Shown here piece after piece: positions 35,168-63,624 of a DNA stretch of 64,000 nucleotides. The position numbers were made by a program, and so were the translations under genes. Source of the DNA: Rhizobiales bacterium PAR1 (GTDB lineage Bacteria > Pseudomonadota > Alphaproteobacteria > Rhizobiales > Beijerinckiaceae); assembly GCA_002256205.1 (NCBI GenBank), contig NKIW01000003.1, forward strand, positions 248,001-312,000, in the 5' to 3' direction. Each line of letters opens with the position of its first letter. The stretch's first letter is position 1. Below the pieces are notes generated by a model. The model had not been told where the DNA came from. It was given only the letters and a program-made list of their open reading frames with translations, and made no database searches.

Positions 35168-36562
35168 CTAGGCCAGCGATGGGCGAACCGAGCGCCAGCT
35201 GGTTACAGCTTCATAGGCCGCGCCAAGCTGGAATAATGTTGGTTCGTCGAACGCATTCCCGACAAGCTGGAACGCCAGCGGCAAGCCGCTTCCTTCCTCA
35301 TACCCCGCGCAAACGGTCATAGCCGGTTGCCCCGTGACGTTGAATGGCATGGTAATTGACGGCTTTTGGTACATCAGCCATTTCGGCACCTTGTCGATCT
35401 CGGGCGCGGGGAAGGGCGAGCTTGCAGTGAAGAGGCAATCAACACCGAGCATCGCATCCGCCACGGCAACGCAGAGTTCGCGCCGCTGACGCATCGCCTG
35501 AACATAGTCGCCACCGGTGAGGAGTCCGCCCATCATGATCCGGTCACGGCCGATTTCACCGTAAAGTTCGGGAGTTGCCTGCAAGTCCTTCTCATGAATC
35601 GAGAAGGCCTCGGAGGACATGATGATCAGCCCTGTTGCGGCAAAGTCCATCAGCGGCGGCAGCGTGATCTCCTTGACGATGCAGCCGAGCGATTTGAAGA
35701 CATCAATTGCAGTCTCCATCGCCGCGACAACGCTCGGCGCAGCCACGTGATCCTCCTCATAGAAGTGGCGGATGATGCCGATTGTCTTGCCCTTCACTGA
35801 GGCGCCAATCTGGCCTGTATAATCCTTGACGACGACGTTCGCCGCTGCCGGATCGAGCGCATCATAGCCCGCCATGCCCTGAAGCATGATGGCCGCATCT
35901 TCCACCGTCCAGCACATTGGCCCGGCGTGATCGAGCGTTTGCGAGAGCGGCAGAATCCCGCGCCGCGAGAGGAGGCCGTAGGTCGGTTTGATGCCTGCGA
36001 GACCGCAGAGCGAGGAGGGCGAGCGGATCGAGCCGCCGGTATCCGACCCCGTCGCACCAAGCACCATACCCGCCGCGACTGCTGCGCCGGAACCGGACGA
36101 GGAACCGCCGGTCATGCGCGTTGGGTCCCACGGATTGCGCGCGGGCGGCGAGAGAATGTCAAAACTCGGCCCGCCAATCGCGAATTCGAAGGTACCGAGC
36201 TTGCCGGTGATCACGGCGCCGGATTCCCGCAATTTTGCGACCGTGAAGGCATCTTCGGTCGGAATGCGGTCTTTCAACAGACGCGAATGTCCCGTCGTGC
36301 GCGTTCCGGCGGTATCGTAGATGTCCTTGAGGCCGACAGGAATCCCGTGCATCGGACTGCGGACTTTCCCCGCCATGACCTCGGATTCCGCGACCTTCGC
36401 CGCCTTGAGCGCGAGGTCCGGTGTAAAGGTGACATAGGCGTTGAGCGTCGGTTCGAGCTTCTCGGTCTTGGCGATGCAGGCCGAGACCAGCTCGACCGGC
36501 GAGAGCTTCTTCTTCGAGATCAGTTTGGCGGCATCGGCGATGGTCAGCAGGGTCGGGTCCAT
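35168..36562 (-). CDS. amidase-signature enzyme, amidase 1
   Basis: A 464-residue amidase-signature (GatA/AtzE-like) hydrolase cleaving a carbon-nitrogen bond. The Ser-cisSer-Lys triad is intact: Lys79 in PVGLKDIYDT, cis-Ser in GGSSSGSG (152-159) and nucleophile Ser178 in GSDTGGSIR. It is the last gene of a minus-strand unit (binding protein - amidase 3 - small - amidase 2 - small - amidase 1), starting 3 bp after the small gene at 36566. The C-terminus (PFNVTGQPAMTV, AFQLVGNAFDEPTLFQLG) fits amidases acting on small organic amides. Substrate unknown; cytoplasmic. Confidence 0.9.
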   Translation of the reverse strand: MDPTLLTIADAAKLISKKKLSPVELVSACIAKTEKLEPTLNAYVTFTPDLALKAAKVAESEVMAGKVRSPMHGIPVGLKDIYDTAGTRTTGHSRLLKDRIPTEDAFTVAKLRESGAVITGKLGTFEFAIGGPSFDILSPPARNPWDPTRMTGGSSSGSGAAVAAGMVLGATGSDTGGSIRSPSSLCGLAGIKPTYGLLSRRGILPLSQTLDHAGPMCWTVEDAAIMLQGMAGYDALDPAAANVVVKDYTGQIGASVKGKTIGIIRHFYEEDHVAAPSVVAAMETAIDVFKSLGCIVKEITLPPLMDFAATGLIIMSSEAFSIHEKDLQATPELYGEIGRDRIMMGGLLTGGDYVQAMRQRRELCVAVADAMLGVDCLFTASSPFPAPEIDKVPKWLMYQKPSITMPFNVTGQPAMTVCAGYEEGSGLPLAFQLVGNAFDEPTLFQLGAAYEAVTSWRSVRPSLA

Positions 36563-36565
36563 CGC

Positions 36566-36754
36566 TCAGCGCTCCGCCGGCTTGAAGATATGGGCGGGCT
36601 CGGCGTCGTAGCCGCGCGGCTTGCGGACGCGCTCGCGCATCGCCTGCAGATAGCCGTAGGCGATGCGGAGTTCATCAAACTGCGGCGGTGTCAGCGTGAG
36701 GCCGGCACGGTCAATCAGGGCCTGAAAGGCTTCCTTGGAAATGGCTTCGCTCAT
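36566..36754 (-). CDS. GatC/AtzG-like small amidase subunit 1
   Basis: A 62-residue helical protein just upstream of amidase 1 (3-bp gap) and 21 bp after amidase 2. It ends in KPRGYDAEPAHIFKPAER. The E-P-A-x-[IMV]-[FY] ending is the hallmark of AtzG/DUF4089-type proteins, which wrap around the amidase partner as GatC does around GatA. Two predicted helices precede it (AFQALIDRAG and FDELRIAYGYLQAMRERV). I infer that it stabilises amidase 1. The ATG has AGGACAT upstream. Confidence 0.72.
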   Translation of the reverse strand: MSEAISKEAFQALIDRAGLTLTPPQFDELRIAYGYLQAMRERVRKPRGYDAEPAHIFKPAER

Positions 36755-36775
36755 GGGGTATGTCCTTTCTGGCGG

Positions 36776-38203
36776 TTATTCGGCGGCAATCGACGAGGGC
36801 ATCGCCCATTGCGCCGGGCGGGTATCGCGGAAGGCGGTGGCTTTCTCGAATGCGCTGCCGAGACGCAGCACGAGATCATCCTGAAACGGCCGCCCGATCA
36901 ATTGCATGTTGAGCGGCAGGCCTGAGGCCGTGAATCCGGGGCAGATCGAGAGCGCGGGCGAGCCTGTGACGTTAAAGGGCCGGGTGAACGAGGGCCGCGC
37001 CCGGCTCAGCATGTTGCCAAGTTCACCGAGCTTGGGCGCAGGCGTCGGCATGGTCGGTGTAACGAGAATATCAACCGTCTCGAACACCTTGGCGATCTGT
37101 GCGATCAGCACGCCGCGCTCGCGAAGGGCATTGACGTAATCCGAGGCGCGGATGAACGCGCCCATCATGATCCGTTGGCGCGCGAGTTCGCCGTAAAGCT
37201 CTGGCGATGCTTTCAACGTCTCCTCATGGAAGGCGAAAGCTTCCGAACGCGAGATCAGCGCCGCGACATCGGCATAGGCCGAGAGCGGGGCGATGGTGAC
37301 GTCAATAATCTCGCATCCAAGATCCTTGAAGGTCGCGAGCGACGCTTCGATGCCGGCCTTGATCTCGGGATCAATCTCGGCATCCTTTTCAAAAAAGTGC
37401 CGGACGACGCCGATTTTCAGGCCTTTGACGTCCTTTTTTACAGAGGCCGCGAAATCCGCCTTGGTGACATCCGCACTGCCGGGATCGATGGGGTCGTATT
37501 TGGCAAGCACGTCCATCATCAGCGCGCAGTCTTCGCTGGTCCAGCACATCGGGCCACCGTGATCGAGGCTGAACGACAGCGGGAGAATGCCGCGCCGGCT
37601 GACGTAGCCATAGGTTGGCTTCAGCCCGGCGATGCCGCACCATGCCGCCGGACCGCGGATCGAGCCGCCGGTATCGGTGCCCATTGTGCCCATCGCGAGG
37701 CTGGCGCCAATCGCTGCGCCTGAACCGGAGGAAGACCCGGCAGGATCATGCGCCGGGTTCCATGGATTTTTGGCGGGCGGCCAGGGCAGATCGAAGGATG
37801 TGCCACCGATCGCAAATTCCCAGGTCGAGAGCTTGCCAAGCAAGATCGTTCCCGCCTCCGCCAGAAGCGCAGTCGTGACCGCGTCTTCCGCCGGAACGTG
37901 ATCCTTGTAGAGCGCGGAATGGCCGGTCGTGGCGATGCCCTTGGTGTTGTAGATATCCTTGAGCGCAATCGGCACGCCATGGAGCGGCCCCTTGTACTCG
38001 CCCTTCATGATCGCCGCTTCCGCCTTGCGAGCGGAGGCCATCGCGGCTTCCGGCAGAACCTTGATGAAGGCATTGAGCGCACCATCAAAGGCCTCGATCC
38101 GTTTGAGATAGGTCGCGGTGAGTTCAACCGGCGAGAGCTTCTTGGCCGCGATCAGCGGTGCGGCTTCGGCGATGGTGAGATCGTGAATGTTGGTCTTGGA
38201 CAT
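36776..38203 (-). CDS. amidase-signature enzyme, amidase 2
   Basis: A 475-residue amidase. Triad: Lys82 in PIALKDIYNT, cis-Ser in AGSSSGSG (156-163), nucleophile Ser181 in GTDTGGSIRGP. The glycine normally preceding the serine-rich loop is replaced by Ala (PAGSSSG). It starts at ATG 38203, seven bases after the small gene at 38211. Its own 3' end is 21 bp from the next small gene, so two small-amidase pairs run in tandem. It is close in sequence to amidases 1 and 3, suggesting local duplication. Substrate unknown. Confidence 0.9.
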   Translation of the reverse strand: MSKTNIHDLTIAEAAPLIAAKKLSPVELTATYLKRIEAFDGALNAFIKVLPEAAMASARKAEAAIMKGEYKGPLHGVPIALKDIYNTKGIATTGHSALYKDHVPAEDAVTTALLAEAGTILLGKLSTWEFAIGGTSFDLPWPPAKNPWNPAHDPAGSSSGSGAAIGASLAMGTMGTDTGGSIRGPAAWCGIAGLKPTYGYVSRRGILPLSFSLDHGGPMCWTSEDCALMMDVLAKYDPIDPGSADVTKADFAASVKKDVKGLKIGVVRHFFEKDAEIDPEIKAGIEASLATFKDLGCEIIDVTIAPLSAYADVAALISRSEAFAFHEETLKASPELYGELARQRIMMGAFIRASDYVNALRERGVLIAQIAKVFETVDILVTPTMPTPAPKLGELGNMLSRARPSFTRPFNVTGSPALSICPGFTASGLPLNMQLIGRPFQDDLVLRLGSAFEKATAFRDTRPAQWAMPSSIAAE

Positions 38204-38210
38204 GGCGCCC

Positions 38211-38408
38211 TCACTTTTTCCAGAGGCGGAGCGCGTGAACCGGCTCCTCAAGGTAGGATCGCGGCTTGCAGATGTTCTTCGCTGCGGTCTGGAGATCTGC
38301 CACGGCGCCCTTGAGCGATTCCAGCGTCTCGGGACCGGCCTTGAGGCCATATTCGGCGAGTTTCATGTCGATCGTGATCGGGCTTTGCGGGGTGGACTCG
38401 GCACTCAT
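38211..38408 (-). CDS. GatC/AtzG-like small amidase subunit 2
   Basis: A 65-residue protein paired with amidase 2. It starts at ATG 38408 with AGGAG upstream. The C-terminus ICKPRSYLEEPVHALRLWKK aligns with the KPRGYDAEPAHIF end of the 36566 protein (KPR-x-Y-x-x-EP-x-H). The N-terminal half is one amphipathic helix (LAEYGLKAGPETLESLKGAV). Two cysteine- or metal-type motifs are absent. I infer that it is the non-catalytic partner of amidase 2. Confidence 0.68.
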   Translation of the reverse strand: MSAESTPQSPITIDMKLAEYGLKAGPETLESLKGAVADLQTAAKNICKPRSYLEEPVHALRLWKK

Positions 38409-38446: not shown

Positions 38447-39865
38447 TCAGGCAGCGAGGGCCTTGAGGCCGGCATCGAGGTCGGGGCGGCGCGAGCGCCA
38501 TGTCGTCGTGGCTTCATAAGCCTGTGCGACGCGGTAGACCGTCGCTTCCTCGAAGGCGTGTCCCGCGATCTGCACCGCAAGCGGCAGGCCCGAGGCGGAA
38601 TAGCCGCAGCACATCGACAGCGAGGGCATGCCAGTGACATTGAATGGGAAGGTCAGCGGCGGCTTGGTGTAGAGGCCGAACTTCGGCATTTCCTTGATCT
38701 TCGGCGCAGGTGTGGCCGCCGAGGCGCAGATGATCACGTCATAGGTGCGCATCACTTTGGCCACGGTCGCGACCAGTTCGCCGCGCATTTTCATCGCGTG
38801 GACATAGTCGGAAGCGTGGACAAACCCGGCGAGGAACAGCCTGTCACGCAGGATTTCACCATACTTCTCCGGACGCTGGCGGATATTCGGCTCGTGGATC
38901 GCAAAGGCCTCCGAGGAGAGGATCATGTTGCCGCAGGAGGCAAAATCCATCAGCGGCGGCAGCGTCACTTCCTCGACGATGGCGCCGAGACTTTTCAGCG
39001 TTTCCGCGACATGAGCGACGCCCTTCATCACCTCGTCGCTCGCGCCGGCCTCTGCGCCGAGTGACGGAAGATACGCCACGCGCAGACCCTTCACACCGCC
39101 ATGAATTCCAGCGCTGGCGCTGACATAGGGGCGATCTGCCGAGGCGGGATCGAGCGGGTCATGCCCGGCAAGCACATCGAGTAGCAGGGCATTATCCTCA
39201 ACCGTCCACGTCATCGGCCCGATATGGTCGAGCGATTGCGAGAGCGGCAGCACACCGCGTCGGCTGACGAGCCCGTAGGTCGGCTTCAGCCCGACAATGC
39301 CGCAAAACGCTGCCGGCAGACGGATCGAGCCGCCGGTATCGGTCCCGAGCGCCGCCGGCATGAAGCCCGCTGCCACTGCCGCACCGGAGCCGGAGGACGA
39401 GCCTCCGGAAAAATGCTCGCGGTTCCAGGGGTTGCGGGCGGGCGGGAAGGGGAGATCGAAGCTTGGCCCGCCCATCGCGAATTCATGCGTCGAGAGCTTG
39501 CCGAGAATAATTGCCCCGGCCTCCTTCAGCTTGGCAGTGACAACGGCGTCCTCCTTCACCCAGTTGTCGATCAACTGATGCGAATGCGCGGTGGTCCGAT
39601 AGCCCGCGAGGTCGATGATATCCTTGAGCCCTACGGGAATCCCGTGGAGAGGCCCGCGCGAGAGGCCGTTCATGACCTCGCTTTCGGCCTTGCGCGCCGC
39701 TTTCAGAGCAAGCTCCGCCGTGACTTCGATGAAGGCATTCGTCACGCCGTCATATTGGTCGACGCGGTCGAGCAGGGTCTGCGTCAGCTCGACCGGGGAG
39801 AGCGCTTTGGAGGCAATCGCCTTGGAGAGCGCGGTGATCGTCATGAAAGGGAGCGGCTCTGCCAT
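38447..39865 (-). CDS. amidase-signature enzyme, amidase 3
   Basis: A 472-residue amidase with the full triad: Lys81 in PVGLKDIIDL, GGSSSGSG (154-161) and Ser180 in GTDTGGSIRLP. It is the only one of the six without its own small subunit gene directly upstream; the binding-protein gene ends 71 bp upstream, and small subunit 2 starts 38 bp downstream. It may act alone or share a partner made by a neighbour. ATG 39865 is used; ATG 39895 would add ten unconserved residues. Confidence 0.9.
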   Translation of the reverse strand: MAEPLPFMTITALSKAIASKALSPVELTQTLLDRVDQYDGVTNAFIEVTAELALKAARKAESEVMNGLSRGPLHGIPVGLKDIIDLAGYRTTAHSHQLIDNWVKEDAVVTAKLKEAGAIILGKLSTHEFAMGGPSFDLPFPPARNPWNREHFSGGSSSGSGAAVAAGFMPAALGTDTGGSIRLPAAFCGIVGLKPTYGLVSRRGVLPLSQSLDHIGPMTWTVEDNALLLDVLAGHDPLDPASADRPYVSASAGIHGGVKGLRVAYLPSLGAEAGASDEVMKGVAHVAETLKSLGAIVEEVTLPPLMDFASCGNMILSSEAFAIHEPNIRQRPEKYGEILRDRLFLAGFVHASDYVHAMKMRGELVATVAKVMRTYDVIICASAATPAPKIKEMPKFGLYTKPPLTFPFNVTGMPSLSMCCGYSASGLPLAVQIAGHAFEEATVYRVAQAYEATTTWRSRRPDLDAGLKALAA

Positions 39866-41976: not shown

Positions 41977-42180
41977 ATGACCCGCAAACTGAGCGAACTC
42001 GTGGAGGAACAGGCGTTCACATGGTCCGGGGTGAAGCCGCCGAATATGCCCGGTGTCCGGCTCGCGGAGGCGCTTGAAAGCAGCATCTCCGGGTTTGAGG
42101 CTCTTCGCGGTCTGCTCGCGTTTGAGGATGAGCCTTCGAGCTTTGAGGCTGCGCTGCAGGCCACCAAGGAGGTCTGCTGA
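41977..42180 (+). CDS. GatC/AtzG-like small amidase subunit 4
   Basis: A 67-residue protein whose TGA overlaps the amidase 4 ATG by one base (TGATG). ATG 41977 has GGAGAGG upstream; a longer opening from 41824 is less likely. The C-terminal half GFEALRGLLAFEDEPSSFEAAL carries the DEP-x-x-F pattern seen in GatC/AtzG-type subunits, but the rest differs from the other small proteins here, in line with amidase 4 being the most divergent amidase. Role as partner is inferred from position and this motif. Confidence 0.6.
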   Translation: MTRKLSELVEEQAFTWSGVKPPNMPGVRLAEALESSISGFEALRGLLAFEDEPSSFEAALQATKEVC

Positions 42181-43616
42181 TGAACAAGCCGCTCCCATCC
42201 TCCGGCGTCCTCGCGCTCTCGATGACCGATGTCGCTGCCGCCATCCGCAAGGGCGATGTGACTGCCGTGGAGGCAACGAAAGCCTCGCTCGATGCCTTTG
42301 CAGCGCATGACAAAGCCATCAACTCGGCGATCTGGCTCGAACGCGAGACCGCGCTCGAAACTGCCGAAGCCTATGACAAGCTGCAAAAGACCGGCAAAAT
42401 CCTCGGCCCGCTCCATGGCGTGCCGCTGGCCCATAAGGATATGTATTACAAGACCGGGAAGCTCTCGACCTGCGGTTCCGCGATCCGCAAGGATTTCAAG
42501 CCCACCTACACTGCGACCGTGATTGAACGGTTGGAGGCTGCAGGTTCCGTGACGCTCGGCGGCCTCAATATGGCGGAATTCGCGCAGAATCCTACCGGGC
42601 ATAACCGCCATTTTGGCCATTGTCGCAACCCTTGGGGCACGGATTATTGCACCGGCGGTTCGTCGTCCGGCTCGGGCGCGGCGGTGGCGGCGCGCTTTGT
42701 TTTCGGTGCTCTGGGCTCCGATACCGGCGGTTCGGTCCGTCTGCCAGCGTCGATTTGTGGTGTCACCGGCATCAAGGGCACGCAAACCCGTGTCTCGCGC
42801 TATGGCGTGATGCCGCTTTCGTTCTCGGCCGACAATGTCGGTCCATTGTGCAAGACGGCGAAGGATTGCGCCGCCTTCATGCAGGTGATTTCCGGCCACG
42901 ACCCGAAGGATCCGACCTCGGCGAGTGAACCGGTGCCGGATTATCTCGCGATGCTTGATGGCGACATCAGGGGTATGCTGATCGGCGTTCCGACCAACTA
43001 CTTCTTTGACGATATCGACGATGAAGTGATGGCGGCCTTCACCGAGGTCTGCAAGATACTCGAAGCGCGTGGCGCGATCATTCTGCCGGTGACAATCCCC
43101 AATATGGACGCCATTGCGACCTATGGCGGCATCGTTTCCCGTGTTGAGGGCGGCACAATCCATGCGCAATGGATGCGCGAGCGGCCGCAGGATTACGCGG
43201 TTCACCTCAGCGCGCGGCTCTACGGCAGCTATGGCATCCCGGCGGTCTATTACATTGAGGGGCTGGCGAAGCGTGGCCCGCTGCTGAAGGCGCTGGCGGC
43301 AGAAGTATTTGAGAAATGCCGCGTCTTCATCACGCCGACGTTGCGCACCAAAGTGCCGACGCTGCTCGCGACCGATATCGACGCCGGTACACCCGGTGCT
43401 GAGAAGGCCTTCATGGATGTCTCGCTCAACACCAGGCCCATCAATTATATGGGTCTGCCCTCTGTTTCCGTGCCGTGTGGATTTGATTCCAACGGCCTGC
43501 CGATCGGCTTCCAGATTCAGGGTCGCCCGTTTGCCGAAGGGCTGGTGCTGAAGGTTGCTGATGCCTACCAGCGCGAGACTGATTGGCACTTGAGAAAGCC
43601 GCCGATCTCGGCGTGA
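42180..43616 (+). CDS. amidase-signature enzyme, amidase 4
   Basis: A 478-residue amidase, the most divergent of the six. Triad: Lys86 in PLAHKDMYY, GGSSSGSG (159-166) and Ser185 in GSDTGGSVRLP. The loop before the serine region is unusual (NPTGHNRHFGHCRNPWGTDYC) with two cysteines, and the later GIKGTQTRVSRYG replaces the common GLKPTYGLVSRRG. This points to a different substrate pocket. It is transcribed divergently from binding protein 1 and ends at a shared terminator. Confidence 0.9.
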   Translation: MNKPLPSSGVLALSMTDVAAAIRKGDVTAVEATKASLDAFAAHDKAINSAIWLERETALETAEAYDKLQKTGKILGPLHGVPLAHKDMYYKTGKLSTCGSAIRKDFKPTYTATVIERLEAAGSVTLGGLNMAEFAQNPTGHNRHFGHCRNPWGTDYCTGGSSSGSGAAVAARFVFGALGSDTGGSVRLPASICGVTGIKGTQTRVSRYGVMPLSFSADNVGPLCKTAKDCAAFMQVISGHDPKDPTSASEPVPDYLAMLDGDIRGMLIGVPTNYFFDDIDDEVMAAFTEVCKILEARGAIILPVTIPNMDAIATYGGIVSRVEGGTIHAQWMRERPQDYAVHLSARLYGSYGIPAVYYIEGLAKRGPLLKALAAEVFEKCRVFITPTLRTKVPTLLATDIDAGTPGAEKAFMDVSLNTRPINYMGLPSVSVPCGFDSNGLPIGFQIQGRPFAEGLVLKVADAYQRETDWHLRKPPISA

Positions 43617-43673: not shown

Positions 43674-44612
43674 CTATTTGACGAGGCTGTCGATTTCCGC
43701 GAGGTCATCGGCAGTGAGAACCCATTCCGTCGCTTTCACATTGGCCTCGATCTGCTCCGGCTTGGTCGCGCCGGCAATCACGGAGGAGACGACGGGCTGC
43801 GCGGCCAGCCACGAAAACGCGAGTTCCACCATGGATTTTCCGCGCTTTTCGCAGAAATCCATGAGCTTTTCGGTTTTCGCCCAGTTGGCATCGGTCAGGT
43901 AGCGGTCCGCGAGTCGTTGGGTATTGGTGAGGCGGGCATCCGCGGGCATCGCAGCGTTGCGCTTGTATTTTCCGGTCAGCAGTCCGAAAGCGAGGGGGAA
44001 ATAGGGCAGGAGGCCAAGACCATAGGCCTGCGCGGCGGGGATCAGCTCCTTCTCCGCGTCGCGTACAAGAAGGCTGTATTCATCCTGTGCCGAAACAAAG
44101 CCCGCGAGATGATGCTCTCTGGCGGTCCATTGCGCGCCGGCAACCTGCCACGAGGGCATGTTCGAGCAGCCGAAATAGCGAATCTTGCCCTGCTGGACGA
44201 GATCGTCGAGCGCGCGCAGCGTTTCCTCGATGGGCGTGCGCGGATCGGCGCGATGAAACTGGTAGAGGTCGATGTAATCGGTCTTGAGACGCCGGAGGCT
44301 GTCTTCCACCGCCTGCATGATATAGCGCCGCGATCCACCGCATTTCTCGCCGCTATCGTCCATATCCATGCCGAACTTCGAGGCGAGGACGATATCCTTC
44401 CGACGCGGGCCGAGCACCTCGCCGAGCATCGTTTCCGATCCGCCGCGATTGCCATAGACATCAGCGGTATCGAACAGCGTGATGCCGCAATCAAGCGCCT
44501 TGTGCACGACCGCGCGTGTCGCCTCAAGGTCGATCCGCATGCCGAAATTGTTGCAGCCGAGCCCGACCACCGAAACACGGAGGCCCGAACGGCCGAGATT
44601 GCGGATTTTCAT
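43674..44612 (-). CDS. aldo/keto reductase
   Basis: A 312-residue NADPH-dependent oxidoreductase with a TIM barrel. The catalytic tetrad is visible: Asp and Tyr in FDTADVYGNRGG (about 48-59), Lys in LASKFGMD (about 77-84) and His in LYQFHRADP (about 122-130). GLGCNNFGMRID near the start is typical of the YajO/PdxI-like subgroup. It is the last gene of the six-gene minus-strand unit starting at 49115, so it may reduce an aldehyde or ketone released by the amidases (inference). Confidence 0.9.
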   Translation of the reverse strand: MKIRNLGRSGLRVSVVGLGCNNFGMRIDLEATRAVVHKALDCGITLFDTADVYGNRGGSETMLGEVLGPRRKDIVLASKFGMDMDDSGEKCGGSRRYIMQAVEDSLRRLKTDYIDLYQFHRADPRTPIEETLRALDDLVQQGKIRYFGCSNMPSWQVAGAQWTAREHHLAGFVSAQDEYSLLVRDAEKELIPAAQAYGLGLLPYFPLAFGLLTGKYKRNAAMPADARLTNTQRLADRYLTDANWAKTEKLMDFCEKRGKSMVELAFSWLAAQPVVSSVIAGATKPEQIEANVKATEWVLTADDLAEIDSLVK

Positions 44613-48905: not shown

Positions 48906-49115
48906 TCAGACGCCCTTCATCAGCAAGGAAAGCGAATAGGTGTTCGAGGGCTCGGATGCCGCTGTACGCGGCTGGCGCAGCAGCGCGGTCATGCGCTTCA
49001 GGTCTTTGTAACCGGCGAAAACGGCCTCAACCCGATCTTCGGGGATGACGACGCCCGCGCGCTTGGCGAGGACCTCGAACTCAAGACGCAGATCAGTATC
49101 CGCTGACTGTGACAT
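48906..49115 (-). CDS. GatC/AtzG-like small amidase subunit 5
   Basis: A 69-residue protein 2 bp upstream of amidase 5. The C-terminal LRQPRTAASEPSNTYSLSLLMKGV keeps the PR-x(4)-EP core seen in the other small proteins, with S-N-T-Y in place of A-H-I-F. The N-terminal half is helical (LRLEFEVLAKRAGVVIPEDRVEAVFAG), with the GVVI-P-x-x-x-V pattern of AtzG/DUF4089. It is the first gene of its unit, downstream of the 49197 palindrome. Partner role inferred. Confidence 0.68.
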   Translation of the reverse strand: MSQSADTDLRLEFEVLAKRAGVVIPEDRVEAVFAGYKDLKRMTALLRQPRTAASEPSNTYSLSLLMKGV

Positions 49116-51329: not shown

Positions 51330-51399
51330 GCGACGCCGGGGGCCGGATTCGCCCGGCCTCCAGACCCCCGTTTTCAACGCGAACCCTGCGGAGGGGACC

Positions 51400-52356: not shown

Positions 52357-52366
52357 GGAGAGAGTC

Positions 52367-53275: not shown

Positions 53276-53291
53276 TCCGATGGAGGCTCCC

Positions 53292-54431: not shown

Positions 54432-54441
54432 GGATCGGAAC

Positions 54442-55473
54442 ATGACCAAGATCTCTCCTGTCTCGACCCTTTCCGCTGCGCCTGTTAGCGCGCTTCAGCC
54501 GCTGGTAGAGGTTGAGAACCTCACCGTGAAGTTCGTCAGCCGCGAGGCCACGGTGAACGCCGTGAACGGCGTCTCCTTCGTCATCAATCCGGGCGAGGTG
54601 CTCTGCATCATCGGCGAATCCGGCTCGGGCAAATCCGTGACGATGCGCGCGTTGATGCGCCTTCTCCCCATGAACAAGACGCGGATCGGTGGGCATATGC
54701 GCGTCGGCGAACATGAGATCCTCAAGCTGACCGATCGCCAGCTTTCGACCATCCGTGGCTCGACGATCTCGATGATCTTTCAGGAGCCGATGACCGCGCT
54801 GGATCCGGTTTACACCATCGGTCACCAGATCGCCGAAACCGTGGTGCGGCATGAAGGCTGCTCCTATGCCGACGGCATGAAACGGGCGCTGGAACTTCTC
54901 GAATTTGTGAAGGTTCCTTCCGCCGAGCGACGCCTCAAGGCATTCCCGCATGAGCTTTCCGGCGGCCTGCGGCAGCGCGCGATGATCGCAATGGCGCTGT
55001 CCTGTCGGCCCTCGCTGCTGCTGGCGGACGAGCCAACCACGGCGCTTGATGCCACCGTGCAGATTCAGGTGCTGGTGCTGCTCCGCAAGCTTCAGGTCGA
55101 TATGGGCATGAGCATGATTTTTGTTACCCACGATCTCGGCGTAGCGGCGCAGATCGCGGATCGCGTCGCGGTGATGTATGCCGGGCGGATCATCGAAAGT
55201 GGCCCAGTGAAGGACGTGCTGATGAACCCGCAGCACCCCTATACCCGCGGTATGCTGGCCTCGTCGGTCCACAGTGCGACACGCGGCGAGGATATCGAGG
55301 CAATCCCCGGTTCACCCCCGGATATGCGCCGTCTCTCGTCTGGCTGCGCCTTCGCACCGCGTTGCGCCTACGCCGACGATGCTTGCCGCGCCGCCATTCC
55401 GCCCGAAACCGTGCCCGGCCCCGGCCGAACGGTCTGTTGCTTCAAGGCCGGCGCGACCGCGCTCGCCTCCTGA
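54442..55473 (+). CDS. ABC transporter ATP-binding protein, OppD/DppD type
   Basis: A 343-residue second ATPase. Walker A GESGSGKSVTMRALMRLLP (about 54-72), signature LSGGLRQRAMIAMAL (about 172-186), Walker B LLLADEPTTALDATVQIQ and H-loop VTHDLGVAAQ. The C-terminal segment GCAFAPRCAYADDACRAAIPPE is the oligo_HPY cysteine motif. It starts 10 bp after the first ATPase gene. Together with the two permeases and two possible binding proteins this makes a full five-part importer. Confidence 0.93.
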   Translation: MTKISPVSTLSAAPVSALQPLVEVENLTVKFVSREATVNAVNGVSFVINPGEVLCIIGESGSGKSVTMRALMRLLPMNKTRIGGHMRVGEHEILKLTDRQLSTIRGSTISMIFQEPMTALDPVYTIGHQIAETVVRHEGCSYADGMKRALELLEFVKVPSAERRLKAFPHELSGGLRQRAMIAMALSCRPSLLLADEPTTALDATVQIQVLVLLRKLQVDMGMSMIFVTHDLGVAAQIADRVAVMYAGRIIESGPVKDVLMNPQHPYTRGMLASSVHSATRGEDIEAIPGSPPDMRRLSSGCAFAPRCAYADDACRAAIPPETVPGPGRTVCCFKAGATALAS

Positions 55474-55496: not shown

Positions 55497-56207
55497 ATGC
55501 ATAAGATCACCATTCCCCAGCGTGTCATCGACAGTGTCATCGCCCGGCGCGGCAAGGAGCATGTCTATGCCGATCTCGATCCGGCGAAGACCGCGCTGAT
55601 CGTTGTTGACCTCCAGAACGGCTTCATGGTCGAGGGCATCGCCCATGCGCTTTGCGAGACGGCGGTGGAGATCGTCCCCAACGTCAACCGCATCGCCGGC
55701 GCCGTGCGCCGCACCGGCGGCAAGGTGTTCTGGATCCGTAACACGCACGACGCTGAATGCCTGACCTCGTGGTCGCATTTCCACGAGGATCTGACCCGGC
55801 CGGAGCGCCGCGCCAAGCGCGTGGAATCGATGTCCGAGGGTAAGCTCGGTCATCAGCTTCACCCGGATCTGGTGGTGATGCCGGAGGATGAAACCGTGCT
55901 CAAGAAGCGCTTTTCGGCCTTCATTCAGGGCTCATCCGACCTTGAACAGCGCCTTCGTGCGCAAGGTTTCGATACCATCATCATCACCGGCACGGTGACC
56001 AACGTCTGCTGCGAATCCACCGCGCGTGACGGCATGATGCTGAATTTCCGCACCATCATGGTAACGGATGGCAATGCGGCGGCCAACGATGAGGAACACA
56101 ACGCCTCGCTCATTGCCTTCTATCTGACCTTCGGCGACATCATGGATACCGACATGCTGGTCGCGTGCCTCGAGCACAACGCCGCGCAAAAAATCGCCGC
56201 CGAATAG
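55497..56207 (+). CDS. isochorismatase-family cysteine hydrolase 1
   Basis: A 236-residue cysteine hydrolase of the isochorismatase superfamily, which includes N-carbamoyl and ureide amidohydrolases. The catalytic triad is visible: Asp in LIVVDLQNGFM (about 37-47), Lys in VLKKRFSAF (about 133-141) and Cys in VTNVCCESTARDGMM (about 170-184). It begins with MHKITIP, like its paralog at 60147-60854. It lies after the ATPase gene and 14 bp before the asparaginase-family gene, so it likely hydrolyses an imported or partly processed amide. Confidence 0.9.
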   Translation: MHKITIPQRVIDSVIARRGKEHVYADLDPAKTALIVVDLQNGFMVEGIAHALCETAVEIVPNVNRIAGAVRRTGGKVFWIRNTHDAECLTSWSHFHEDLTRPERRAKRVESMSEGKLGHQLHPDLVVMPEDETVLKKRFSAFIQGSSDLEQRLRAQGFDTIIITGTVTNVCCESTARDGMMLNFRTIMVTDGNAAANDEEHNASLIAFYLTFGDIMDTDMLVACLEHNAAQKIAAE

Positions 56208-56221: not shown

Positions 56222-57223
56222 ATGTTCGTTAAACCTAAGGTCGCCGTCATCGGGACCGGCGGCACGATCTGTTCGATCGGCACCGGTCCCTTCGATATTC
56301 TCGATTACGGAGCAAACGAGAAAATGCTCCACGCGGATGCGCTCGTGGCGTTGTTCCCCGAGGTGCAGGAAATCGCCGAGGTGATCCCGGTGCCTTTCAA
56401 GGCGGTGCCGAGCCCCGATATCTTCTTTCCCGAGTGGAAGGAGCTGGTGCTGATCTGCGATCGGCTCGTCGCGGAGTACAAGGATCTCGCAGGCATCGTG
56501 ATCCTGCATGGTACTGCCTCGCTGGAGGAAACGGCGTATTTCCTCTCGCTGACGGTCAAGGTGGATATTCCGGTGGTTGTCGTGGGCTCGCAACGACCGG
56601 CCTCCGCGCTCTCATCCGATGCCGGCATGAACCTCGCGAATGCGATCCGTACGGCGGCTTCACCTGAGGCGTACGGCATGGGTGTGCTCGCGCTTCTCAA
56701 CGATGAAATCCATGCGGCGCGCGAGGTCACCAAGACCTCGACCTTCCGCCTCCAGACCTTTCGCTCGCCGGATTTCGGCGTGCTCGGTCATGCCGATGGC
56801 GATAAAATCGTGTTCTACCGCAAGCCGATCCGCAAAGTGGGGCCTGAGACCGAGTTCGATATCCGCACGCTGGAGGCTCTGCCGCGCGTGGATATTGTGT
56901 ACGCCTATACGGGGGCAGATGGGACCGCGCCGCGCGCTTTTATGGCCGCAGGCGCGAAGGGGTTGATCTCGGCAGGTTTCGCGCCGGGCTTTGCGGGGAA
57001 GGGCGATTTCGAGGTGCTGAAAAAGGCAGTTCAGGCCGGCATCGTGGTGATGCAATCGACGCGCGCCGGCTCTGGCCGCACCTTCAAGGGCAAGCGGTTG
57101 CGCGAAGCCGGCTTCCTGATTGCGGACAATCTCAACCCGCAGAAGGCGCGATTATTACTCGCGCTGGCGTTGACGGTGACAACGAAACCGGAAGAGATTG
57201 AGCGTATTTTCCTCACCTACTGA
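56222..57223 (+). CDS. asparaginase-family amidohydrolase with altered substrate motif
   Basis: A 333-residue protein of the L-asparaginase I/II superfamily. The nucleophile loop GTGGTICS has Thr15 and Thr12, the general-base region is VILHGTASLEET (93-104) and Lys171 is in REVTKTST. In true asparaginases the motif reads H-G-T-D-T; here Asp is replaced by Ala99 and Thr by Ser100. The lost Asp normally contacts the alpha-amino group of the substrate, so this enzyme probably hydrolyses a side-chain amide lacking that group (inference). No signal peptide; cytoplasmic. Confidence 0.88.
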   Translation: MFVKPKVAVIGTGGTICSIGTGPFDILDYGANEKMLHADALVALFPEVQEIAEVIPVPFKAVPSPDIFFPEWKELVLICDRLVAEYKDLAGIVILHGTASLEETAYFLSLTVKVDIPVVVVGSQRPASALSSDAGMNLANAIRTAASPEAYGMGVLALLNDEIHAAREVTKTSTFRLQTFRSPDFGVLGHADGDKIVFYRKPIRKVGPETEFDIRTLEALPRVDIVYAYTGADGTAPRAFMAAGAKGLISAGFAPGFAGKGDFEVLKKAVQAGIVVMQSTRAGSGRTFKGKRLREAGFLIADNLNPQKARLLLALALTVTTKPEEIERIFLTY

Positions 57224-59365: not shown

Positions 59366-59377
59366 ATTGCATCCAAC
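59366..59377. promoter_or_regulatory. ATTG-N4-CAA(C) palindrome, site 5
   Basis: ATTGCATCCAAC shares the ATTGCATCCAA core of site 1 with one changed end base. It lies 52 bp upstream of the GntR start, fitting autoregulation. Confidence 0.6.
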
Positions 59378-59429
59378 CTACGACGCAGATAGGAACAGGC
59401 AAGCAAGAAGACCAGAGAGGGGAAACACC

Positions 59430-60134
59430 TTGGCGACCAGAGGATTGACCGTCACGCGCGCCGTGCGCGAAGCTATTCTCAATGGCGATTATCCGGGTGG
59501 CGGGCGGATGAATGAGGTCGAGTTGGCGACAACGCTCGGCGTTTCGCGAACACCGATCCGTGCCGCACTCTCGACACTCGCGGCGGAGGGGCTGCTCTCC
59601 TACACGCCGAACAGCGGTTACGTCGTCAAGAGTTATACCTCGCAGGATATCTCCGGGATCTATGACGTGCGTTCGACGCTGGAAGGGCTTGGCACCCGGC
59701 TTGCCGCCGAGCGTGGTCTTTCGGATGCCGCCCGCGGCCAACTCCACAAGATTGTACAGGACGGCGCGGAGCTTGTTGCCGGTGGCGTGTGGAATGATGC
59801 GGTTGCCGAGGCCTGGGAGCAGGTCAACAACAGTTTTCATCGTGTGATGATGGAAGCAGCGGCAAACCCGCATCTGCTGTTCCTGATGCAGAAATCGCGC
59901 GAAATCCCGCTTCTGAACCAGCTCAAGTTCCGCTGGCATGATTTTGATGTCATGGCGCGTTCGCAGGAAGATCACGCGACGATTTTCGAGGCCGTGACCC
60001 TGCGGCAGGTGCATCGCGCCGAAGCGCTGGCCTGCGAACACGTGTTCAAGTCAGGCGCGCGTATCGTCGAGCATTGGCGCAAGACCGAGGTGGCAAAGCG
60101 CCCCTCAGGTGCGCGCTCGAAAGTGGCGGCCTGA
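59430..60134 (+). CDS. GntR-family (FCD subfamily) transcriptional regulator
   Basis: A 234-residue regulator with an N-terminal winged helix (ATRGLTVTRAVREAIL, then MNEVELATTLGVSRTPIRAAL and GLLSYTPNSGYVVKSYT, about 1-70) and an all-helical FCD effector domain (about 80-215) with YDVRSTLEGLGTRLAAERG and NNSFHRVMMEAAANPHL, the metal/ligand-binding region. TTG 59430 has AGAGGGG seven bases upstream; no suitable ATG exists. I infer that it controls the whole amidase block, since a palindrome of the GntR type recurs before its units and before its own gene. Confidence 0.88.
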   Translation: MATRGLTVTRAVREAILNGDYPGGGRMNEVELATTLGVSRTPIRAALSTLAAEGLLSYTPNSGYVVKSYTSQDISGIYDVRSTLEGLGTRLAAERGLSDAARGQLHKIVQDGAELVAGGVWNDAVAEAWEQVNNSFHRVMMEAAANPHLLFLMQKSREIPLLNQLKFRWHDFDVMARSQEDHATIFEAVTLRQVHRAEALACEHVFKSGARIVEHWRKTEVAKRPSGARSKVAA

Positions 60135-60146: not shown

Positions 60147-60854
60147 CTATTCCGCTGCCATAGGCATGGCGCTGCCGGCTGCGATCGTGTCGATAACCTC
60201 TTCGGTGGATTGCACATCGGCAAACAGCGCGAGCATGTTACCAAGCGTGCCGTTATGCTCTTCGTCGGTGCGGCAGGCATTCCCGTCCGAAACAAAAACC
60301 ACCTTGTAATTCATCATCATCGCGTCGCGTGCCGTGGATTCACAACACACGTTTGTGGCCGTCCCGGTGATGATCAGGGTATCGATGCCCGCCTTCTTGA
60401 GCAGGGCATCAAGGTCCGATGAGCCGGGCACAAAGGCGCCGAAACGTTGCTTTTCAACCTTCCAGTCCTCCGGCTTGACTATGAGTTCCGGGTAGATCGC
60501 ATGGCCGAATGAGCCGCGTTCGAAGGCAGCGATCATGCGTTCCTTGATGGCCCCATGCAGGAAGTTGTCGAACCAGGTCGTCCATTCGGCCTTGGTTTCC
60601 TCGGTGACCGTGTTCTGGATGTAGACCACCTGACCACCCGCAGCGCGCAGGGCCTCGCCGATCTTGTTGACGTTGGGGACGATCTCCCGCGCATTGCCGA
60701 TCTCAGCTGGCTGCCCAGGCGCCATGAAGCCATTCTGAAGATCGACAACGACCAGGGCTGTCTTTGATGGCACGACGCTCTCGAACAGGCGAACCTTGCC
60801 GCGCCGCTCAATGACACGGGCGAGAACGAAATCGGGAATCGCAATCTTGTGCAT
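60147..60854 (-). CDS. isochorismatase-family cysteine hydrolase 2
   Basis: A 235-residue paralog of the 55497 protein, beginning MHKIAIPDFVLARVIERRGK. Triad: Asp in LVVVDLQNGFM (about 38-48), Lys in VEKQRFGAFVPG (about 128) and Cys in TATNVCCESTARDAMM (about 165-180). The segment between the first and second blocks differs most from its paralog, so substrate preference may differ. ATG 60854 has AGGAG upstream. It is transcribed toward the GntR gene, divergent from the EamA gene. Confidence 0.9.
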   Translation of the reverse strand: MHKIAIPDFVLARVIERRGKVRLFESVVPSKTALVVVDLQNGFMAPGQPAEIGNAREIVPNVNKIGEALRAAGGQVVYIQNTVTEETKAEWTTWFDNFLHGAIKERMIAAFERGSFGHAIYPELIVKPEDWKVEKQRFGAFVPGSSDLDALLKKAGIDTLIITGTATNVCCESTARDAMMMNYKVVFVSDGNACRTDEEHNGTLGNMLALFADVQSTEEVIDTIAAGSAMPMAAE

Positions 60855-60910
60855 ATCGGGCTCCTGTTGGTGGAATACCGGCATGAGCCCGACATTGGGC
60901 GATATGCCAT

Positions 60911-60924: not shown

Positions 60925-61023
60925 CAGGCATCTCAGCAATCTGCGCGCCAAGCCTTTGCCGATCCAAGAGCGCCTATTGCGCTTCGGCCTGATCCTTGCG
61001 TCATTCGGGGGAAAGGAGCGTCC

Positions 61024-61896
61024 ATGGATACGCATACAATCCGAAAAGGCATTCTCTGGATGCTGGCCAGCGCAGCCTTTCTGGCGCTCGGCAATTCCAT
61101 CGTGCGGACAATTGCCCGCGAACTGCATCCTTTTCAAATCAGTTTTCTCACAAATGGGCTGGTTCTGGTGATCGTTTGGCCATCGCTCGCGACAAGAAGT
61201 AAGCAGGATGGGCGTGCAGAGCGGATAAAATTGTACGCAATAACGGCGATGATTGGCGGCGTGACCAATCTGACGTGGTTTTATGCCCTGGCGCATGTCC
61301 CTTTGGCCGAGGCGACCGCGATTACCTTTGCCGCGCCTATTCTTGTGACGGCTCTGGCGGGTCTGGTCCTCGGTGAAGTTGTTTCGCTCCATCGCTGGAT
61401 TTCAGTTGTCGCCGGTTTTTTCGGCGTTATGATTATCGTTAGGCCCGGATTTGCTCAAATTGACGCCGGTATTGTCACAGTGCTGATCTCCACAGTTGGC
61501 ATGGCCTCAACCTATCTCCTGTCGAAGCGGATCATGCGGGTCGATACCGCAAGACGCGCAGCCGCGATGATGACTGCGATCCCGGTGGTCACGGGAAGCG
61601 TCCCGGCACTCCTTGTCTGGAAAGGCCCATCTCTGGATACAATGATGTGGGTCTTGTTCATGGCAGTTGCCATGTACTGCGGGCGCCTTGCCATGCTGCA
61701 TGCGCTCAAGTCTGCTCCGGCGACGACCGTCATGCCGTTTGATTTTGCCCGATTGCCCTTTGTTGCGGCCATTGCCTTCGTCGCCTACGACGAAAAGCCT
61801 GATCTTTATGCTCTGGCAGGCGCGCTTATCATTCTCGGCGCAACCTTGTCCATCTACCGACAGGAGCAGGGTAGCAGTCGCAGAGATGTGGCATGA
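61024..61896 (+). CDS. EamA/DMT-family transporter upstream of amidase 6
   Basis: A 290-residue protein of ten helices in two EamA repeats; FFGVMIIVRPGFAQIDAG (about 140-157) marks the boundary, and YALAHVPLAEATAITFAAPILVTALAG is the repeat 1 core. The start ATG 61024 has AAAGGAG upstream. It diverges from hydrolase 2 and precedes the small subunit 6 gene by 91 bp that contain a separate operator-like site. Substrate unknown. Confidence 0.87.
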   Translation: MDTHTIRKGILWMLASAAFLALGNSIVRTIARELHPFQISFLTNGLVLVIVWPSLATRSKQDGRAERIKLYAITAMIGGVTNLTWFYALAHVPLAEATAITFAAPILVTALAGLVLGEVVSLHRWISVVAGFFGVMIIVRPGFAQIDAGIVTVLISTVGMASTYLLSKRIMRVDTARRAAAMMTAIPVVTGSVPALLVWKGPSLDTMMWVLFMAVAMYCGRLAMLHALKSAPATTVMPFDFARLPFVAAIAFVAYDEKPDLYALAGALIILGATLSIYRQEQGSSRRDVA

Positions 61897-61902
61897 GGGT
61901 TG

Positions 61903-61916
61903 CTTTGTATTCAATT
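61903..61916. promoter_or_regulatory. ATTG-N4-CAAT-like palindrome, site 7
   Basis: CTTTGTATTCAATT keeps the TTG-N4-CAATT frame, 71 bp upstream of the small subunit 6 start, suggesting an own promoter for the last amidase unit. Confidence 0.5.
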
Positions 61917-61987
61917 GGCGCGTAGGAGGCGGATTGCCTTCGCAACCGGACAGTTGGCGCCAGTGTCCTTCAAGGAGTTCGCCGGTC

Positions 61988-62218
61988 ATGTCCCATACCA
62001 CGCCAACCGTTTCCACGGCGGTCTCGAAAGAGGAGATCGCCGTCTTCATTAAGCGGGCAGGGTTCACGCTCTCCCAGCCCGAGATCGACGCCTATTACGA
62101 AGCCTATGGCTACATCGAGCAGATGGCGGCGCTGATCCGCGCCCCGGCGCCGAACCGCATGAGCTACATGGTCGAACCCGCGCATATGTTCAGCTTTCCG
62201 GTGGAGGGAACGAAATGA
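61988..62218 (+). CDS. GatC/AtzG-like small amidase subunit 6
   Basis: A 76-residue protein overlapping the amidase 6 start by four bases (ATGA). ATG 61988 has AAGGAG nine bases upstream. The C-terminus RAPAPNRMSYMVEPAHMFSF carries the EPAH[IM]F motif shared with the 36566 protein, and AGFTLSQPEIDAYYEAYGYIEQM parallels the AGLTLTPPQFDELRIAYGYLQAM segment of the latter. This pair is the clearest evidence that the small proteins form one family. Confidence 0.75.
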   Translation: MSHTTPTVSTAVSKEEIAVFIKRAGFTLSQPEIDAYYEAYGYIEQMAALIRAPAPNRMSYMVEPAHMFSFPVEGTK

Positions 62219-63624
62219 GCAAGGACATGCTGACCATTGCTGAAGCCTCTGGCCTGATCGCTGCTGGCAAGCTCTCGCCGGTGGAACTGACCGAGGCGTG
62301 CCTTGCGCGGGTCGAGACGCATGATCACGCCATCCATGCCTTTGTGACCGTAACAAAGGAGCGCGCGCTGGCCGATGCGAAACGCGCCGAGGCCGAAATC
62401 AAAGCCTCGGGTCCGAAATCGCCGCTGCATGGCATCCCGATCGGCCTCAAGGATATCATTGATACGAAAGGCATTCTCACGGCATGCCAGTCGTTCCACA
62501 ATCTCAACAACATCCCCGGTTCCGACGCGACATGCGCCGAAGCGCTCGCCAAGGCCGGCACGGTGCTCATGGGCAAGCTCACGACGCACGAGTTTGCCGA
62601 TGGCGGTCCCTCCTTTGACAATCCATGGCCTCCTTCGCGCAATCCGTGGAATACCGCGCATTTCACCGCAGGCTCTTCCAGCGGCACGGGGGCTGCCATT
62701 CCGGCGGGGATGATCCTCGGCGGGCTGGGTACTGATACCGGAGGGTCTATCCGTGGTCCGGCCGCGCTTTGCGGTATTGTCGGGATCAAGCCCACCTACG
62801 GACTGGTGAGCCGCGCCGGTGTTGCACCCGCTGCCTATTCGCTCGATCATATCGGCCCGATGGCTTGGACGACCGAGGATTGCGCGCTGATGCTTCAGGC
62901 GCTTGCGGGCTATGATCCCAAGGATCCCGCCAGCGCTAATCGACCCGTGCCGGATTACTTGGCAAGCCTCAAGACCGGCGCCAAAGGTCTCAGGATCGGG
63001 GTGCTGCGGCGCTGGCATGAGGAGGATCGCAAGGTCGCGCCTGCCGTGCAGGCCGGGATCGATAATGCGATTAAGGTCTATGAGAGCCTCGGCGCCGAGA
63101 TCCAAGAGGTCAACGTCTCCTCGCTCAAGCATTATGCGGCGGCGGGCTTCTTTATCTCGACCGCTGAACGTGCCGCCGCATACGAGGCGATGATGCTCGA
63201 TAGCCCTGAGAAATTCGGGGCGCGCTACCGGGATCGCCTGATCTTCGGCTCGTTTGTTACCTCGATGGACTATGTTCAGGCGATGCGGCGGCGGCGTGAG
63301 TTGCTGGCAGAAATGTCAGGCATTCTCGCGGGGGTGGATGTCGTGTTGACCGCAGGCAATCCGGATGAAGCACCGCTGATCGATAAGGTGCCGCGCTGGG
63401 ATAACCTCGACAAGCCGAACTTCACCATGCCGTTCAATCTCACGGGGATGCCCGCGATCTGTGTTCCCTCAGGTTTTGGGCCACAAGCGCTGCCGGTCTC
63501 GATCCAGCTCGCCGCCAAGCCTTTCGATGAAGCGACGCTGTTTCGCGCAGCGCATGCCTTTGAAGAGGCAACCAGCTTCCGTGATGTGAGGCCGGTGCTG
63601 GCGGCTGTTCAGGCTGCTGCCTGA
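62215..63624 (+). CDS. amidase-signature enzyme, amidase 6
   Basis: A 469-residue amidase. Triad: Lys79 in PIGLKDIIDT, AGSSSGTG (152-159) and Ser178 in GTDTGGSIRGP. The serine loop shows Ala for Gly before SSSG, as in amidase 2, and Thr for Ser (SGTGAAIPAG). SRAGVAPAAYSLDHIGPM replaces the common RRGVLPLSQSLDH. It is translationally coupled to its small subunit and closes the block. Substrate unknown; cytoplasmic. Confidence 0.9.
   Translation: MSKDMLTIAEASGLIAAGKLSPVELTEACLARVETHDHAIHAFVTVTKERALADAKRAEAEIKASGPKSPLHGIPIGLKDIIDTKGILTACQSFHNLNNIPGSDATCAEALAKAGTVLMGKLTTHEFADGGPSFDNPWPPSRNPWNTAHFTAGSSSGTGAAIPAGMILGGLGTDTGGSIRGPAALCGIVGIKPTYGLVSRAGVAPAAYSLDHIGPMAWTTEDCALMLQALAGYDPKDPASANRPVPDYLASLKTGAKGLRIGVLRRWHEEDRKVAPAVQAGIDNAIKVYESLGAEIQEVNVSSLKHYAAAGFFISTAERAAAYEAMMLDSPEKFGARYRDRLIFGSFVTSMDYVQAMRRRRELLAEMSGILAGVDVVLTAGNPDEAPLIDKVPRWDNLDKPNFTMPFNLTGMPAICVPSGFGPQALPVSIQLAAKPFDEATLFRAAHAFEEATSFRDVRPVLAAVQAAA

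What the first reader, a model, noticed from the sequence alone, without database searches (positions are those of the whole stretch)
35168..63624. Six amidases, five coupled to small GatC/AtzG-like subunits, in one 28-kb block
Seen: six amidase-signature proteins with intact Ser-cisSer-Lys triads. Five are preceded by 62-76 residue proteins with gaps of -4, -1, 2, 3 and 7 bp. The small proteins end in variants of PR-x-Y-x-x-EPAH[IM]F. Known: GatC with GatA, and AtzG (DUF4089) with AtzE, are obligate small subunits of amidases. Inference: this is an array of heterodimeric or heterotetrameric amidases, each with its own dedicated small chaperone-like subunit, for breaking down an unidentified amide compound. 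I know of no described pathway with this composition.
Basis: partly seen in the sequence, partly recalled or inferred. Interest (0 to 1): 0.88.

Follow-up and report, generated by a model that had tools for sequence, protein, structure and literature searches.

The report
Amidase array with GatC-like partner proteins
This bacterium carries one block of six amide-cutting enzymes, five of them encoded next to a tiny partner protein that is usually left unnamed and is distantly related to known helper subunits of such enzymes, which points to a scattered but broad family of two-part amidases that databases largely overlook.

Summary
In detail: six intact amidase-signature genes, five directly preceded by a 62-76 residue gene. 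A profile started from four small proteins, run over all ORFs of 35+ residues in 93 sources, gave 91 hits: upstream of, downstream of, between, or fused to amidases, none elsewhere. In held-out plasmids 19 of 19 records have it; it is listed as 'hypothetical' in 12, 'AtzG-like' in 1, not listed in 6. Pfam does not recognise the window copies, but profile-profile comparison links the family to AtzG (95%, E 2e-8) and weakly to GatC. The fold's seven best PDB matches are chains from GatCA(B) or AtzEG entries, at non-significant E-values. S4 belongs to a second, remote type. All but one of the block's genes recur in G804, another genus of the family, and parts in Bosea, Prosthecomicrobium and Bradyrhizobium. 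Occurrence is sparse: 9 of 99 family genomes, 4 of 398 in a phylum sample. Most likely: heteromeric amidases releasing ammonia from imported amides; complex and substrate untested. New variant of a known kind.

The parts
35168..36562 (-). A1, amidase-signature protein, 464 aa
   Evidence: PF01425 E 1.1e-98; residues intact
36566..36754 (-). S1, 62-aa GatC/AtzG-like small protein before A1 (gap 3 bp)
   Evidence: seed of the family profile; 71% and 66% identical matches in L041 and L186; model pLDDT 90
36776..38203 (-). A2, amidase, 475 aa
   Evidence: PF01425 E 1.3e-107
38211..38408 (-). S2, 65-aa small protein between A3 and A2 (7 bp before A2)
   Evidence: family seed; nearest small proteins are those found with A2-type amidases
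38447..39865 (-). A3, amidase, 472 aa, without a small gene of its own
   Evidence: PF01425 E 3.3e-116; no small gene seen between it and the upstream binding protein here, in L041 or in L186
39937..41547 (-). solute-binding protein of a peptide-type ABC importer (SBP_bac_5)
   Evidence: Pfam
41977..42180 (+). S4, 67-aa small protein of a second type (stop overlaps A4 start by 1 bp)
   Evidence: similar small frames before A4-like amidases in other genomes
42180..43616 (+). A4, amidase, 478 aa, 31-37% identical to the other five
   Evidence: PF01425 E 7.9e-100
43674..44612 (-). aldo/keto reductase
   Evidence: Pfam; no match in the syntenic loci tested
44631..45410 (-). short-chain dehydrogenase
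   Evidence: Pfam
45414..46361 (-). acetamidase/formamidase-family protein
   Evidence: PF03069
46383..47465 (-). EamA transporter (start codon uncertain)
   Evidence: Pfam
47488..48903 (-). A5, amidase, 471 aa
   Evidence: PF01425 E 6.1e-104
48906..49115 (-). S5, 69-aa small protein before A5 (gap 2 bp)
   Evidence: family seed; S5-A5 pairs in L089, L084, L185 and Prosthecomicrobium-type loci
49731..55473 (+). peptide-type ABC importer: binding protein, two permeases, two ATPases
   Evidence: Pfam for four of the five genes; second permease by position and conservation only
55497..56207 (+). isochorismatase-family hydrolase
   Evidence: PF00857; nearest solved relative RutB, E 1.4e-19
56222..57223 (+). 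asparaginase-family protein
   Evidence: PF00710 and PF17763
57198..59281 (+). EamA transporter and AbrB-family protein (two genes, start codons uncertain)
   Evidence: Pfam
59367..60134 (+). GntR-FCD regulator
   Evidence: Pfam
60147..60854 (-). second isochorismatase-family hydrolase
   Evidence: PF00857; nearest solved relative 3hb7, E 2.7e-24
61021..61896 (+). EamA transporter (start codon uncertain)
   Evidence: Pfam
61988..62218 (+). S6, 76-aa small protein before A6 (overlap 4 bp)
   Evidence: family seed
62215..63624 (+). A6, amidase, 469 aa
   Evidence: PF01425 E 1.7e-102

Best explanation
The block encodes an amide-nitrogen catabolic system. A peptide-type ABC importer, with a second binding protein, brings in amide-bearing compounds. 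Amidases A1, A2, A4, A5 and A6 each work as a complex with a small, non-catalytic helical subunit of the GatC/AtzG kind, which probably packs on the amidase and is needed for its folding or solubility, as AtzG is for AtzE; the amidases hydrolyse amides with the Ser-cisSer-Lys residues and release ammonia. Two isochorismatase-type hydrolases, an asparaginase-type and an acetamidase/formamidase-type protein take further amide bonds, and a GntR protein regulates. Shown here: gene pairing, intact residues, conservation, fusions, remote homology to AtzG. Inferred: the physical complex, its stoichiometry, the need for the subunit, the substrate and the catabolic purpose. For S4 the inference is weaker.
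For: Of 91 profile hits 59 lie upstream of an amidase, 7 between two, 9 downstream, 16 are fused to the C-terminus, 0 elsewhere. 85 of 93 close-relative amidases have a small gene or domain, against 3 of 21 lower-scoring amidases in the same loci; 40 of 61 upstream genes overlap the amidase start by 4 bp with the start codons chosen by my script. 19 of 19 held-out plasmid records have it, 17 upstream and 2 downstream, E 2e-17 to 6e-4; next best ORF, inside an amidase, E 0.013. Profile homology to AtzG 95%, E 1.9e-8; trimmed score 36 against at most 12.3 in 60 column-permuted controls, GatC 19 against at most 7.9. The seven best PDB fold matches of the S1 model are small chains of GatCA(B) or AtzEG entries. 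A natural fusion is modelled at pTM 0.94 with small-domain helices at pLDDT 92-96. Small and amidase distances correlate, r 0.59 against at most 0.13 in 1000 permutations, 85 pairs. AtzG is non-catalytic, an obligate heterotetramer partner of AtzE, which is insoluble without it (PMC6219798, passages). The block recurs nearly whole in G804.
Against: No pair from the window was modelled as a complex and no contacts could be measured. Pfam and NCBIfam do not recognise the small proteins. The Foldseek E-values for S1 are not significant (0.18-1.4). A profile search of PDB sequences showed no AtzG or GatC in the 60 rows listed of 129; calmodulins led, best E 0.0009. AtzG and GatC profiles did not match each other (score 2.5), and the GatC link has only 8% hhalign probability. 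The S4 family does not match AtzG above controls (6.8 against at most 7.1). A3 has no small gene. In A2's clade 4 of 11 leaves (L021_65, L035, L036, L049) had none found, one of them at the edge of its stretch. The unfiltered nearest-partner test was null (72 of 176, 77 expected). The family is sparse: 9 of 99 family genomes and 4 of 398 in a phylum sample, own genome included, with few candidates scored per genome. Substrate and growth role are untested.
Confidence: 0.77

Rival explanations
1. The small proteins are independent regulators, leader peptides or toxin-like proteins that merely share operons with amidases.
For: They are short, divergent and unrecognised by Pfam; the best NCBIfam hit of S6 is a RiPP leader family at E 0.014, below its cut-off.
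Against: 16 fusions to amidase C-termini and 0 of 91 hits away from amidases, occurrence on either side of the amidase, and profile homology to AtzG.
Confidence: 0.07
2. The amidases act on a tRNA-linked substrate, as duplicated GatCA units, and not on free amides.
For: GatA is the nearest solved relative of A1 (E 4e-69) and among the best NCBIfam models for all six.
Against: All six score below the GatA cut-off; the genome has its own gatC-gatA elsewhere; no GatB-like protein appeared among the block genes scanned with Pfam, though no dedicated search was run; neighbours are importers and other amide hydrolases.
Confidence: 0.04
3. The block is a cyanuric acid, biuret or triuret pathway of the AtzE/BiuH/TrtA type.
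For: AtzE-like amidases with small partner genes, and two isochorismatase-family hydrolases.
Against: AtzE, allophanate hydrolase and BiuH models score far below cut-off; in the PDB the isochorismatases match RutB and other proteins better than biuret hydrolases; no DUF3225 (AtzH) protein appeared among the block genes scanned. TrtA was not searched for by name.
Confidence: 0.06

Closest known systems
AtzG-AtzE, 1-carboxybiuret hydrolase of Pseudomonas sp. ADP (PDB 6C62, 6C6G)
   Same: Small gene directly before the amidase; small helical protein with a C-terminal E-P-like motif; profile homology; nitrogen-catabolic setting.
   Different: Window small proteins are not recognised by PF13318; the amidases fall below AtzE cut-offs and outside the AtzE group of the tree; five pairs stand in one block; fusions and downstream order occur in the family.
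GatC-GatA of the GatCAB amidotransferase
   Same: Amidase plus small helical subunit encoded upstream; most of the best fold matches of S1 are GatC entries.
   Different: PF02686 hits only one place in the genome, beside gatA on contig C8; profile link weak; small proteins about 20-35 residues shorter than the GatCs seen; no GatB seen among the block genes scanned.
Amidase-signature enzymes known as single proteins (peptide amidase, malonamidase E2, nylon cyclic-dimer hydrolase)
   Same: Same fold and residues.
   Different: That these work without a small subunit is recalled, not tested. The genome's nine other amidases besides GatA lie outside the tree half that holds GatA, AtzE and the block's six.

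Membership tests
Amidase signature family (PF01425) | Pfam match over cut-off and Ser-cisSer-Lys residues | tested here: met
   all six
AtzG-like (PF13318) | Pfam match over cut-off | tested here: not met
   0 of 5 window proteins; no match over cut-off in the genome; 4 of 82 relatives weakly, best E 0.0071
AtzG-like (PF13318) | homology at profile level | tested here: met
   hhalign 95%, E 1.9e-8 for the S1/S2/S5/S6 family, above permuted controls; not for the S4 family
AtzG-like (PF13318) | partner amidase is AtzE | tested here: not met
   all six below NCBIfam AtzE cut-offs; outside the AtzE group
AtzG-like (PF13318) | obligate physical complex with the amidase | not testable with these tools
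   only a single-chain model of a natural fusion
GatC (PF02686) | Pfam match over cut-off | tested here: not met
   one match in the genome, on contig C8 beside gatA; no GatC match for the five window proteins
GatC (PF02686) | homology at profile or fold level | tested here: inconclusive
   score 19 against at most 7.9 in permutations but probability 8%; top Foldseek hits at E 0.18 or worse
GatCAB amidotransferase | GatB subunit encoded nearby | not tested
   no dedicated search; none appeared among the block genes scanned

The most novel reading that the evidence does not exclude
The array is a set of matched two-part amidases that together dismantle one multi-amide natural compound, each enzyme made specific by its own small subunit, with S2 shared by A3 and A2 in a mixed complex; and the small subunits are two further branches of an ancient GatC-type module that was reused for catabolic amidases in groups from cyanobacteria and Chloroflexi to proteobacteria, as separate genes or by fusion.
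Probability: 0.17. Interest if true: 0.78.

Novelty: new variant of a known kind. Interest (0 to 1): 0.55.

Why it matters
If right, a number of proteins annotated simply as 'amidase' are half of a two-part enzyme. Expressing them without the neighbouring small gene, which the plasmid records mostly call hypothetical or do not list, may give insoluble or inactive protein, so screens of amidases for biocatalysis or degradation would miss them. The family also offers an evolutionary bridge between GatC and AtzG that can be tested directly.

Tried and rejected
Direct Pfam and NCBIfam scans of the five small proteins gave no significant family. A profile search of PDB sequences gave calmodulins, best E 0.0009, judged chance because only short helical pieces match. 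An island inserted at the tRNA-Glu at 34787-34861 was tested: no exact repeat of 14-30 bp of it or its 3' flank within C18:228001-350000, and none of the 12 integrase matches of the genome lies on that contig; dropped. GC content does not set the block apart. The unfiltered nearest-partner test was null; with an orthology filter chosen afterwards 28 of 33 agreed, 14.5 expected, all five misses involving L020, where the S2-type gene lies one amidase further on.

Literature: the listings showed nothing on this family or block; one search listed 15 of 7,259 matches, and the library holds open-licence papers only. PMC6219798 and PMC12283126 were read in passages found by search. The AtzEG structure paper is not held; its title is known from the PDB and paper listings.

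Counts with caveats; 4 of the 11 'downstream' cases are genes between two amidases (L020, L041, L065, L089), and L089's A4-like amidase has an S4-type frame upstream. Of the 8 'none', seen by eye: L074 has a divergent small frame upstream; L090 ends at its contig end; L021_65 is cut by the edge of the fetched stretch; L058 has a divergent C-terminal tail; L075_9991 follows a fused gene; L035, L036 and L049 have none seen. Of the 3 partnered among 21 low scorers, one is the broken A1 relative in Bosea L041 and two are L075 fusions. 74 of the 80 loci have at least one hit. Alignment A3 used 82 of the 91 hits. One search left out L041_6546, L089_8266 and short pieces, and kept L020_8209 with what is probably the wrong partner. 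S4 set: 15 of 29 other loci, plus L089 and the window; left out were near-duplicates (L145, L148, L160, L161), doubtful frames (L153, L156, L158, L162, L163, L165) and loci with none seen (L143, L154, L155, L166). GatC: 27 of 30 loci gave a sequence. AtzG: 13 of 14 loci.
Full report
What is there. The block 35168-63624 holds six amidase-signature genes (A1-A6). All six pass the PF01425 cut-off and keep the Lys and Ser residues of the triad. A1, A2, A3, A5 and A6 are 44-55% identical to each other and A4 31-37% to them. Five small genes precede A1, A2, A4, A5 and A6 at +3, +7, -1, +2 and -4 bp (coordinates). A3 has none seen. Between them lie a peptide-type ABC importer and a second binding protein, two isochorismatase-family hydrolases, an asparaginase-family protein, an acetamidase/formamidase-family protein, a short-chain dehydrogenase, an aldo/keto reductase, three EamA transporters, an AbrB-family protein and a GntR regulator.

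Is the pairing real. A profile started from S1, S2, S5 and S6 and iterated over all ORFs of 35 residues or more in 93 sources (these 80, 12 stretches of the own genome, the window) gave 91 hits at E 1e-3: 59 upstream of an amidase, 7 between two, 9 downstream, 16 fused to the amidase C-terminus, none elsewhere. Position was not used in building the profile, but the loci were chosen because they hold amidases. Of 93 close-relative amidases 85 have such a gene or domain; of 21 lower-scoring ones 3 do. In 40 of 61 upstream cases the overlap is 4 bp.

Held-out test. Searches with A1 and A5 listed 12 and 11 plasmid records, 19 distinct. All 19 stretches were scanned over 2593 ORFs. All 19 have a match beside the amidase, 17 directly upstream and 2 (both Aminobacter) directly downstream, E 2e-17 to 6e-4, 18 of them 3.4e-7 or better; the next best ORF, inside an amidase, has E 0.013. 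Some records are near-copies (Planktothrix, Shinella, Aminobacter in pairs). They include a cyanobacterium and beta- and gammaproteobacteria. The gene is listed as 'hypothetical protein' in 12, as 'AtzG-like protein' in 1 (Roseomonas marmotae), is not listed although neighbours are in 3, and 3 stretches list no features; the PLSDB gene table is incomplete, so not listed does not mean unannotated at NCBI.

What the small proteins are. Pfam and NCBIfam give nothing significant; 4 of 82 relatives match AtzG-like PF13318 weakly, best E 0.0071. Profile-profile comparison with 13 AtzG-family sequences gives 95% and E 1.9e-8; in a trimmed version 83%, score 36 against at most 12.3 for 60 permuted controls, and for GatC score 19 against at most 7.9 but 8% probability. 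AtzG and GatC did not match each other directly. The S1 model (pLDDT 90, two helices and a tail) has as its seven best PDB matches small chains of GatCA(B) or AtzEG entries, among 350,542 chains, at E 0.18 to 1.4. S4 belongs to a second type seen before A4-like amidases in other genomes of the order; its family of 17 matches the main small family (score 25, 33%, against at most 8.5 in 40 permutations) and GatC less (15 against 8.8), and not AtzG.

What the amidases are. In a midpoint-rooted tree of 138 sequences, A1, A2, A3, A5 and A6 fall in a group of 74 leaves without GatA or AtzE; the six, GatA and AtzE lie together in a group of 118 (support 0.92), and the genome's nine other amidases lie outside it (the middle of the printed tree was cut). 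Deep supports inside are low. NCBIfam places the six nearest GatA, AtzE or PRK06169, all under cut-off. Two L075 fusions lie outside the 118-leaf group, so the small domain is not confined to it. The natural fusion L045 was modelled at pLDDT 94.9 and pTM 0.94, nearest GatA and AtzE structures.

Do partners match. Distances of 85 small-amidase pairs correlate at 0.59, against at most 0.13 in 1000 permutations; shared ancestry contributes to this. Between loci holding several pairs the unfiltered nearest-partner test was null (72 of 176, 77 expected); with an orthology filter chosen afterwards 28 of 33 agreed against 14.5 expected. S2-type genes tend to go with A2-type amidases whether before or behind them, but 4 of 11 leaves of that clade had no small gene found.

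The block elsewhere. G804, another genus of the same family, gives matches to 27 of the 28 block genes tested, all but the aldo/keto reductase: amidases 75-84% identical, small proteins 46-68%, the others 53-84%. Bosea L041 and three genomes of one genus (G293's contig has the length of the Prosthecomicrobium hirschii record) hold large parts, and Bradyrhizobium L089 the importer with S4-A4-S5-A5. Three other genomes of the window's own genus show no hit; in all 9 of 99 family genomes and 4 of 398 genomes of a phylum sample have one, own genome included. The occurrence is patchy; the counts are lower bounds because only 16 or 64 candidates per genome were scored.

How it probably works. AtzG is non-catalytic, obligate and needed for AtzE solubility (PMC6219798, passages). 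By homology and by the fusions I infer that S1, S2, S5 and S6, and more tentatively S4, do the same for their amidases. The neighbouring genes suggest uptake of amide compounds and stepwise release of ammonia. The substrate is unknown; biuret-type chemistry is not supported by the hydrolase matches.

Novelty. Heteromeric amidases with a GatC-like subunit are known, and AtzG-AtzE gene pairs in varied nitrogen-related contexts are described (PMC6219798). What I did not find described, within the searches listed, is this separate and mostly unnamed small-subunit family, its fusions, the second (S4) type, and an array of five pairs.

Noticed in passing
window 34787-34861: A tRNA-Glu gene lies just left of the block, but no repeat of it was found within the 122 kb tested and no integrase match lies on the contig.
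   Followed up: yes
L075 5666-9988: Two amidases outside the main tree group also carry the small domain fused at the C-terminus, in tandem.
   Followed up: partly
L187 5762-5983 and L197 2184-2483: Two Planktothrix agardhii plasmids have the small gene directly before their amidase; the gene table of one lists it as hypothetical, that of the other does not list it.
   Followed up: partly
L041 9764-11332: The A1 relative in the Bosea MAG appears split over two reading frames; assembly error or pseudogene not decided.
   Followed up: no
L035, L036, L049: A2-type amidases with no small gene seen nearby, so some members may use a distant subunit or none.
   Followed up: partly
L192 5792-10274 and L203 2280-6386: Rhizobium tumorigenes and R. 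rhododendri plasmids: one small gene followed by three amidases, in L192 next to a peptide-type ABC importer, a smaller array of similar make-up.
   Followed up: no
L086: A small gene with one amidase is followed by two more amidases, with a third on the other strand, all three without recognisable partners.
   Followed up: partly
G000 C18:332231-333493: A seventh amidase gene lies about 20 kb beyond the window on the same contig, without a small gene seen and in the other half of the tree.
   Followed up: partly
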